A DNA stretch of 35,613 nucleotides, taken from positions 1 to 35,613 of the forward strand of contig JAFAYV010000057.1 in the NCBI GenBank assembly GCA_019240115.1. The letters are read 5' to 3'. Source of the DNA: Solirubrobacterales bacterium. GTDB lineage: Bacteria; Actinomycetota; Thermoleophilia; Solirubrobacterales; Solirubrobacteraceae. Below the pieces are notes generated by a model, which saw only the letters and a list, made by a program, of their open reading frames with translations, was not told where the DNA came from and did no database searches. Below, piece by piece: positions 32,833-34,445 of this stretch. A program made the position numbers and the translations under genes. The stretch's first letter is position 1, and each line of letters begins with the position of its first letter.

Positions 32833-33543
32833 TTATGGTAGCGGACCGTTTCCGGGCCGATGTTCGTGGCGCGATAAGCGCATCGCGCTCTGCTCGCGCC
32901 GCCAGCCGGCGATCCGCCCGTGGTGACCGGAGAGCAGGATCTCGGGCACGCGCCAGCCGCGATACTCGGCCGGCCGGGTGTAGTGCGGGTACTCGGGGCC
33001 TCCCTGCAGCGCCGCCGAGAAGGACTCCTCGACCGCCGAGTCCGCGTGGCCGAGCGAGCCGGGAAGCTTGCGCAGCACGGCATCGCAGACGACCATCGCG
33101 GCCAGCTCGCCGCCGGCGAGGACGTAGCGGCCGATCGACACGCGATCGGTGGCGAAATGCTCGAGGATGCGCTCGTCGAAGCCCTCGTAGCGACCGCACA
33201 GGAGCGTCAGCGCCGGCGCCTGGCGCAGCTCGTCGACGAGCGCGTCGTCGAGCAGCCGACCGCCGGCGTCGAGCGCGATCACCCGGCGCACGGCGCCGAG
33301 CGACACGGGATCGCGGCCGTAGCGCGCTCGCAGGGCGGCCTCCACGACGTCGACGCGCAGGACCATGCCCGCGCCGCCGCCGAACGGCGTGTCGTCGACC
33401 TGGCGGCCGCTCAGTGGCGTGTGGTCGCGGTAGTTGACGAGCCCCAGGGCGTGGCCGCGCGCCAGCGCGTTGGTGACGTGGCGCTGCGTGGCGAACCAGC
33501 CGAACGCGTCCGGGAACAGCGTGAAGACGTCGATCTCCATCAT
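32833..33543 (-). CDS. trmD: tRNA (guanine-N1)-methyltransferase TrmD
   Basis: Methylates G37 of tRNAs with G36, preventing frameshifts. The 236-residue SPOUT-fold protein starts MMEIDVFTLFPDAFGWFATQ and contains the knot region LTLLCGRYEGFDERILEHFA and IGRYVLAGGELAAM, with the SAM loop GG, and the C-terminal LLSGHHGRIAGWRREQSAMR. A conserved Asp follows FGGGAGMVLR. The start overlaps the rimM stop as ATGA; a second ATG follows at once. A longer upstream frame is the antisense of rimM. The rpsP-khpA-rimM-trmD-rplS order is standard. Confidence 0.96.
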   Translation of the reverse strand: MMEIDVFTLFPDAFGWFATQRHVTNALARGHALGLVNYRDHTPLSGRQVDDTPFGGGAGMVLRVDVVEAALRARYGRDPVSLGAVRRVIALDAGGRLLDDALVDELRQAPALTLLCGRYEGFDERILEHFATDRVSIGRYVLAGGELAAMVVCDAVLRKLPGSLGHADSAVEESFSAALQGGPEYPHYTRPAEYRGWRVPEILLSGHHGRIAGWRREQSAMRLSRHEHRPGNGPLP

Positions 33544-34040
33544 CGCTCGCCGAGGAAGCGCAGGTCGATGTCGATCACCCCCCGCGCGAGGTCGACGTCG
33601 CGGACGGCGTCGGAGATGAGCGGCACCAGCAGCGCCCGCCCGCCCGCGGCGCGTTGCACCTCGAGCACCTCGCACGAGGGCAGCTCGAGCAGCTTGCAGA
33701 CCACCCCCACCTCCTCGTCGCCGTCGCGCACCGCGCACCCCTCGAGGTCCTCGGCCCACCACTCGTCCTCCTCGAGCTCGGGCGCGGATTCACGCTGCAC
33801 GAAGATCTCCTGACCGCGCAGCGCCTCGGCGTCGGCGCGCTCGGCGCAGCGTTGCAGCCGCATGATCGGGCCGCGGGCGTGGCCGGCGAGGCGCTCGACC
33901 CGGAGCGTGCGCTCGCCGACGCGCACCGCCATGCCGGCTTCGAGCAGCGCCGGCACCGGCAGCGCGACGTGAAAGCTGCCGTCGAGGCCGTGCGGTCGCC
34001 CGACGATTCCCGCGCGCAGCCAGCGATCGGGCTCGGCCAA
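33540..34040 (-). CDS. rimM: Ribosome maturation factor RimM
   Basis: Helps assemble the 30S head with S19. From TTG at 34038-34040 the protein has 166 residues, the usual length: RAGIVGRPHGLDGSFHVALP marks the N-terminal barrel, and the PRC-barrel half contains EDEWWAEDLEGCAVRDGDEE and VPLISDAVRDVDLARGVIDI. TTG is the only plausible start between the fold-back element and the first conserved strand; earlier in-frame codons run into the repeat. No good ribosome-binding site is seen, and the start sits seven bases from the left end of the fold-back element, so its translation may depend on that structure. Confidence 0.9.
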   Translation of the reverse strand: MAEPDRWLRAGIVGRPHGLDGSFHVALPVPALLEAGMAVRVGERTLRVERLAGHARGPIMRLQRCAERADAEALRGQEIFVQRESAPELEEDEWWAEDLEGCAVRDGDEEVGVVCKLLELPSCEVLEVQRAAGGRALLVPLISDAVRDVDLARGVIDIDLRFLGER

Positions 34041-34046
34041 GCGACT

Positions 34047-34210
34047 AGTGCCCCCGTCCGCGAGTCCTGCGGTATTCGAGCACTCCCTGGCGGCGCCGGG
34101 CTTTGTCCTCGAAGTCTCGTGTAGCGCTGCTACACGTCGACTTCTGCGTCCTCGCCCGGCATCCACCAGCGAGCACTCTCGGTGCCGCACGACTCGCGGA
34201 CGTGGACACT
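34047..34210. repeat. 164-bp fold-back element between khpA and rimM
   Basis: Nearly the whole gap is one imperfect inverted repeat. The outer arms (34047-34072 and 34185-34210) pair at 23 of 26 positions. Inside them CTGG/CCAG (34087-34090, 34166-34169) and GCCGGGC/GCCCGGC (34095-34101, 34154-34160) pair, and the centre is a perfect stem GAAGTC/GACTTC plus CGTGTAGC/GCTACACG (34118-34125, 34129-34136) with loop GCT. CGAGCACTC appears as a direct repeat on both sides (34077-34085, 34170-34178). The right end overlaps the khpA stop codon, and the left end is seven bases from the rimM start. No gene is encoded in it. Confidence 0.75.
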
Positions 34211-34445
34211 ACGCGTCGACGATGTCGACGAACACCCGACGGCGCCCGCGGCTCGCCGCCGCCTTGATGACCGTGCGCAGCGCCTGGGCGGTGCGGCCGC
34301 CCCGGCCGATGATGCTTCCGTAGTCGTCATCGGAGACCGAGAGCTCGAGCACGAGCGAGCCGTCGTCCTCCTCCACCTCGGTCACCCGCACCGCGTCGGG
34401 ATGCTCGACGAGCCCGCGGGCGAGATCCTCGAGCAGTTCCCTCAT
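34209..34445 (-). CDS. khpA: KH-domain RNA-binding protein KhpA
   Basis: The 78-residue protein is one KH domain with the GxxG loop in SIIGRGGRTAQALRTVIKAA and the ending RRRVFVDIVDA. KhpA (also YlqC) binds RNA, in some species together with KhpB, and influences cell division. It lies 16 bp after rpsP, the standard place. The stop codon is inside the right arm of the fold-back element. The ATG at 34443-34445 has AGG a few bases upstream. Confidence 0.94.
   Translation of the reverse strand: MRELLEDLARGLVEHPDAVRVTEVEEDDGSLVLELSVSDDDYGSIIGRGGRTAQALRTVIKAAASRGRRRVFVDIVDA

What the first reader, a model, noticed from the sequence alone, without database searches (positions are those of the whole stretch)
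34047..34210. Large fold-back element filling the khpA-rimM gap
A 164-bp nearly continuous inverted repeat occupies the space between two ribosome-related genes that are usually nearly adjacent. It overlaps the khpA stop and reaches to seven bases from the TTG start of rimM. It could be a structured operon RNA, a transcript-processing site or an inserted fold-back repeat. The three-level nested pairing is more elaborate than a simple terminator.
Basis: seen in the sequence. Interest (0 to 1): 0.6.

Follow-up and report, generated by a model that had tools for sequence, protein, structure and literature searches.

The report
Mobile hairpin repeat with RNA-like core
The fold-back between khpA and rimM is one copy of a small jumping DNA repeat that landed in the stop codon of khpA; copies across related soil bacteria keep one strand's fold intact through paired mutations while swapping the repeat's ends, so something selects for that single-stranded fold.

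Summary
The fold-back is real. The element is 162 bp (34048-34209), flanked by TA on both sides. It folds far better than shuffles on both strands, and best on the khpA-rimM mRNA strand.

It is not an operon feature: the khpA-rimM gap is empty in all 23 relatives with a readable gap. It is one of about 20-30 dispersed copies in this genome, with many more in other Solirubrobacterales. Ends (CTA|GTG...CAC|TAG) resemble IS630 elements of the same genus, so it is a MITE-like non-autonomous insertion. It sits in the khpA UAG stop codon and rebuilds it. A relative carries another copy in the rpsP UAG of the same operon.

Less expected: outer arms differ almost freely between copies but stay complementary and of fixed length (159-163 or 218-224 nt) around a conserved apical core. 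Variation is strand-polar: between sister copies, G.U differences outnumber A.C 79 to 8. Of 85 copies, 85 fold better on the same strand. A covariance model of the core finds it in other families and classes of the phylum, inside hairpins with different ends. That points to selection on a single-stranded (RNA or ssDNA) fold, probably during propagation. Its function is not shown.

The parts
34048..34209 (-). 162-bp fold-back (MITE-like) element; the minus strand is the strongly folding strand and is also the mRNA strand here
34046..34047 (.). TA flank, one copy of the presumed TA target duplication
   Evidence: sequence; same flanks in other copies
34210..34211 (.). TA flank, other copy; also the first two bases of the khpA TAG stop codon
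   Evidence: sequence
34184..34209 (-). terminal inverted repeat at the 5' end of the folding strand (GTGTCCACGTCCGCGAGTCGTGCGGC)
34048..34073 (-). terminal inverted repeat at the 3' end of the folding strand (read from outside: GTGCCCCCGTCCGCGAGTCCTGCGGT)
34098..34160 (-). conserved apical core (CM R1 match, 85.3 bits): CGAGGACGCAG ... CGAGGAC internal loop and capping hairpin
34209..34445 (-). khpA (KH-domain RNA-binding protein); its UAG stop is TA of the target plus G of the element
33540..34040 (-). rimM, TTG start 7 bases from the element; an in-frame GTG inside the element (34188-34190) gives a longer open frame

Best explanation
The feature is one copy of a family of non-autonomous, MITE-like elements of fixed size (about 162 bp, or 222 bp with an extra hairpin). 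Copies end in (TA)GTG...CAC(TA) and were most likely inserted by IS630/Tc1-mariner-type transposases at TA, preferring CTAG. Here the element went into the TA of the khpA UAG stop. Because it begins with G, it rebuilt the stop, so khpA is intact and rimM now lies behind a very stable hairpin in the operon transcript. Shown: the repeat family, the gap empty in relatives, the TA flanks, IS630-like ends in the genus, covariation, and strand polarity. Inferred: insertion by an IS630 enzyme in trans, and that the single-stranded fold of one strand (RNA or ssDNA) is selected during propagation of the element rather than as a regulator of the operons it lands in. The outer arms and terminal repeats are replaceable; the apical core and total length are not.
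For: Dispersed copies: 31 BLAST matches in the own genome (some are fragments or two pieces of one copy, and some are self-complement matches) and 19 core hits by CM; matches in 14 of 41 relatives. Empty gap in 23 relatives; an independent copy in the rpsP UAG of G022. TA on both sides in 25 of 63 well-bounded copies, and 41 of 90 gene ends facing an element have a UAG made of TA plus the element's G. IS630 transposase genes in the genus, with CTA|GTG ends; several ends match element ends beyond any of 300 shuffles, e.g. L108 17/21 and L104 17/21 beyond GTG. Covariation: 95% of cells paired versus 77.5% shuffled and 30-43% slid; 390 versus 103 double-change cells. Polarity: sister copies WC/GU 79 versus WC/AC 8 (52 versus 8 at WC-majority pairs), and 63 double WC-WC changes; 1x1 mismatches G.U 222 versus A.C 17 and purine-purine 175 versus pyrimidine-pyrimidine 20; 85 of 85 copies fold better on that strand. 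Core found in other families and classes, in hairpins with other ends.
Against: No IS630 element carrying exactly the window's terminal sequence was found, and several genomes rich in copies have no PF13358 gene in their draft assemblies. No expression data. Some strand polarity is inherited between copies; the sister-copy test reduces but does not remove this. In copies between co-directional genes the folding strand is antisense more often than sense (36 versus 14), so a transcript source for an RNA is not evident.
Confidence: 0.75

Rival explanations
1. An ordinary IS630 MITE with no selection on its fold. Arms stay complementary because quasi-palindromes are corrected by template switching during replication, and the strand bias is inherited from one ancestral copy.
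For: Palindromic DNA with TA flanks and IS630-like ends; MITE transcripts generally fold into stem-loops (PMC2229807, PMC10969869).
Against: Template correction is strand-symmetric and should leave as many A.C as G.U sites, but sister copies show 52 versus 8 at WC-majority pairs. The conserved internal loop GAGGAC/GAGGAC is a direct, not inverted, repeat and is not corrected away. The core outlives its terminal repeats across families. TIRs are less conserved (0.53) than the apical core (0.80), the reverse of what a plain MITE predicts.
Confidence: 0.17
2. A structure-dependent ssDNA mobile element: the conserved strand folds as single-stranded DNA and is recognised by a nuclease or recombinase, comparable to attC sites or IS200/IS605 ends.
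For: Strand-specific fold with fixed geometry, independent of orientation to host genes. The minus strand also folds better with DNA parameters, -63.7 versus -51.1.
Against: Ends and TA flanks fit IS630 cut-and-paste insertion; no associated integrase or Y1 transposase was sought or seen; a strong G.U excess is more natural in RNA.
Confidence: 0.15
3. A cis-acting RNA of the khpA-rimM operon (attenuator, processing site or terminator).
For: Lies between the two genes; the more stable fold is on the mRNA strand.
Against: Absent from the gap in 23 relatives; the same sequence is dispersed at many unrelated loci; no Rfam match.
Confidence: 0.04

Closest known systems
IS630/Tc1-mariner-derived MITEs (general class)
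   Same: Short, no coding capacity, terminal inverted repeats, TA flanks, dispersed copies at gene edges; IS630-family insertion duplicates TA (PMC2170065), and its reference list cites the CTAG preference of IS630.
   Different: Terminal repeats are the least conserved part; the conserved part is a strand-specific apical core with covarying arms and fixed length, also found with unrelated ends in other families.
Correia/NEMIS elements of Neisseria
   Same: About 100-160 bp hairpin repeats with TA at the ends; their RNA stem-loop is cut by RNase III in mRNAs (PMC2229807, PMC10969869).
   Different: Different host phylum; no sequence comparison was made here; strand-polar covariation is not mentioned in the passages read.
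ERIC/IRU, RUP, YPAL and CIR repeats
   Same: TA at termini (most), long RNA stem-loops, intergenic (PMC2229807).
   Different: Other phyla; no shared core tested. CIR has two arms with a linker rather than one rod.
REP/REPIN sequences
   Same: Palindromic dispersed repeats at gene ends.
   Different: REPs are 20-40 bp (abstract of PMC3733652); this element is 162-222 bp with TA-flanked TIRs.

Membership tests
IS630-type MITE | Short element without a transposase gene, in dispersed copies | tested here: met
   162 or 222 bp; many copies in the own genome
IS630-type MITE | Terminal inverted repeats | tested here: met
   Window copy: 22 of 26 end positions identical; 17-25 of 26 in the copies kept as well bounded
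IS630-type MITE | TA target duplication | tested here: met
   TA both sides in the window and in 25/63 copies; gap empty in relatives, the inferred pre-insertion site keeps the khpA UAG. TA-duplication and TA-in-element cannot be told apart from a palindrome alone
IS630-type MITE | TIRs match an autonomous IS630 element of the host or its relatives | tested here: inconclusive
   Other subtypes match IS630 ends of the genus strongly (L108, L104, L068, L113); no exact partner for the window's own TIR was found
IS630-type MITE | Moves in trans with an IS630 transposase | not testable with these tools
   needs an experiment
Known Rfam RNA family | Matches a curated covariance model | tested here: not met
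   No match at E<=1 for the window locus and none in the elements of six distant loci
REP/REPIN | 20-40 nt palindrome mobilised by a RAYT | tested here: not met
   162-222 bp, TA-flanked TIRs; RAYT genes were not searched
Correia/NEMIS | Correia terminal repeat sequence | not tested
   no Neisseria sequence was fetched

The most novel reading that the evidence does not exclude
A structured RNA (or ssDNA) module, shared across Actinomycetota, that survives as a mobile element by repeatedly exchanging its outer arms and terminal repeats so that unrelated DDE transposases move it (IS630-type ends with TA; IS5/IS1031-like ends with TTA in G511 and G274), while the apical core, rod length and one-strand fold are kept.
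Probability: 0.35. Interest if true: 0.8.

Novelty: new variant of a known kind. Interest (0 to 1): 0.62.

Why it matters
MITEs are usually seen as passive leftovers defined by their ends. Here the ends are the replaceable part and a folded core on one strand is what persists. If true, it gives a clear case in which a non-coding, structured molecule, not a transposase, defines a mobile lineage, and it can be tested in the lab. It also shows a way to sit in operons with little coding damage: insertion into UAG stop codons that are rebuilt by the element's first base.

Tried and rejected
Rfam search of the locus and of distant copies: no relevant match. Operon-specific RNA: rejected by the empty gap in relatives. 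Selection through host mRNA: not supported, since the folding strand is antisense to co-directional neighbours in 36 of 50 cases. A full-length element with G511-type ends and a transposase was not found in the loci examined; PF01609 hits in G488 gave one possible related end (L375, 3 mismatches in 15). A K-turn reading of the internal loop was considered and dropped because the geometry does not fit. Literature searches with MITE plus Solirubrobacter, IS630, compensatory or covariation terms found no description of this family; only open-licence full texts are held.

Full report
**Observation.** The element is 34048-34209 (162 bp), between TA 34046-34047 and TA 34210-34211. On the minus strand, khpA ends GCG-TAG, where TA is flank and G is the first base of the element. 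The TTG of rimM is 7 bases beyond the other end. Neighbours were confirmed by profile: S16, KhpA (PF13083), RimM (TIGR02273), TrmD, and Ffh upstream of S16. Both strands fold far better than shuffles, the minus strand best (z -12.7 and -8.9).

**A dispersed repeat.** The sequence has 31 BLAST matches in the own 4.03-Mb genome. Some are two pieces of one copy and some are self-complement matches. Three full-length copies without the extra hairpin are 92-100% identical. In a sample of 41 genomes, 14 have matches, nearly all in the same genus.

**Empty site and insertion point.** In 23 relatives with a readable khpA-rimM junction, the gap is -10 to +59 nt and holds no element. The inferred pre-insertion site GCG-TAG-TCGC-TTG keeps the khpA stop. 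In G022 another copy sits between rpsP and khpA, again at a UAG stop (TAG|TGGTCG...), where the other genomes with rpsP have gaps of -4 to +37 nt. Over all copies with flanking sequence, 41 of 90 gene ends facing an element have UAG formed by TA plus the element's G (gene calls are from a simple codon model of mine).

**Ends.** Well-bounded copies read CTA|GTG...CAC|TAG. TA is on both sides in 25 of 63, and CTA or TAG is common. An IS630-family IS in the own genome (L068) has ends CCTA|GTGGGTCCAACC... and GCTA|GTGGGGCCAACC.... L108 in a sister species, an IS630 transposase by NF033545, has a left end GTGGTCGTCCCCGTAAGTAC, identical over these 20 nt to element ends of the same subtype. Ends of different element subtypes resemble ends of different IS630 elements: 16-17 of 21 positions beyond GTG for eight of 19 ends, where shuffles reached at most 15 for those ends. 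IS630-family insertion into TA with duplication is documented (PMC2170065).

**Fixed size, free arms.** Lengths fall at 159-163 and 218-224 nt, the latter carrying an extra ~60-nt hairpin on the 3' side of the folding strand; a few are ~280. The core motif starts 51-56 nt from the 5' end in nearly all, although the outer arms differ almost entirely between subtypes. Mean identity is 0.53 in the terminal arms, 0.76 in the middle and 0.80 in the apical part.

**Covariation and polarity.** On 43 full-length copies (A1), 58 pairs: 95.0% of cells paired (shuffled 77.5, slid 30-43), 43 pairs with double changes (27.7), 390 double-change cells (103), and a score of 0.502 (0.176); no shuffle reached these. 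The alignment is a sequence alignment, not fitted to the structure. In 22 matched sister pairs, single changes are WC/GU 79 and WC/AC 8, with 63 WC-WC double changes. Limiting to pairs that are WC in at least 70% of copies gives 52 versus 8; at 90% it is 19 versus 6. Counting 1x1 mismatches in folds that forbid G.U gives G.U 222, A.C 17, purine-purine 175, pyrimidine-pyrimidine 20. All 85 copies in that set fold better on the same strand, by 24 kcal/mol on average. Copying one arm onto the other during replication would keep arms complementary but is not polar. The polarity is therefore the main reason to infer selection on a single-stranded fold.

**Core.** Columns invariant or nearly so in A1, which was collected by similarity to the window copy and not by the pattern, include most of CRAGGACGCAG on the 5' side and GAGGAC on the 3' side of the apical stem. 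These face each other and allow a tandem G.A arrangement. The CM R1 was built on A2, whose members were chosen partly by a pattern holding these letters, so the invariance in A2 is not independent.

**Wider distribution.** R1 finds 19 hits in the own genome and hits at E<=1e-4 in 16 of 396 genomes across the phylum, including other families and classes: G511 with 13, G389 with 6, G029 and G488 with 5 each. Many of these lie in hairpins of 156-163, 177-179 or ~206 nt with other ends: GAATCTATCTCAAAAGGC-type ends flanked by TTA on both sides in six elements of G511/G274; GGCCGTGTCTCC in G488; GTGG in G044 and L341. For several singletons no clear ends were found. Calling the first two IS5/IS1031-like rests on my recollection of such ends and on the TTA flanks; no matching transposase was found. 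The folding strand is again the more stable one in G488 4/4, G044 3/3 and four single elements 4/4; in G511/G274 it is 5/6, with little A.C/G.U difference.

**Orientation.** Between co-directional genes the folding strand is antisense in 36 and sense in 14 (p 0.003). In the window and in G022 it is sense. Selection through host transcripts is thus unlikely to be what keeps the fold. Selection during propagation fits better, but this step is inference.

**Effect here.** The operon transcript should carry a hairpin of about -119 kcal/mol between khpA and rimM. Reduced coupling or RNase III cutting, as reported for Correia elements (PMC10969869), is possible but untested.

Noticed in passing
G511 and G274 (loci L343-L372): About 100 copies of TTAGAATCTATCTCAAAAGGC (up to 1 mismatch) in G511, many as inverted pairs ~165 bp apart and some as very short pairs of ~60 bp; 13 core hits there. 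No matching transposase found.
   Followed up: partly
L339 (G029:C4:267300-269500), positions 1036-1197: Two tandem copies of the core ~100 nt apart, close to the tmRNA gene.
   Followed up: no
L338 (G044:C26:1-4500): Three elements in the same orientation within 2.3 kb, with the strongest strand asymmetry seen (about -41 kcal/mol).
   Followed up: no
L037, L040, L044, L170: Copies of about 270-315 nt with additional hairpins inserted in one arm, suggesting stepwise growth by ~60-nt hairpin modules.
   Followed up: no
33540-34190 (minus strand): The rimM frame stays open into the element, with a GTG at 34188-34190, so annotation software may call a false N-terminal extension.
   Followed up: no
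L068 (G000:C75), 884-2070: Complete IS630-family element in the own genome with CTAG at both ends, next to two tRNA-like sequences.
   Followed up: partly
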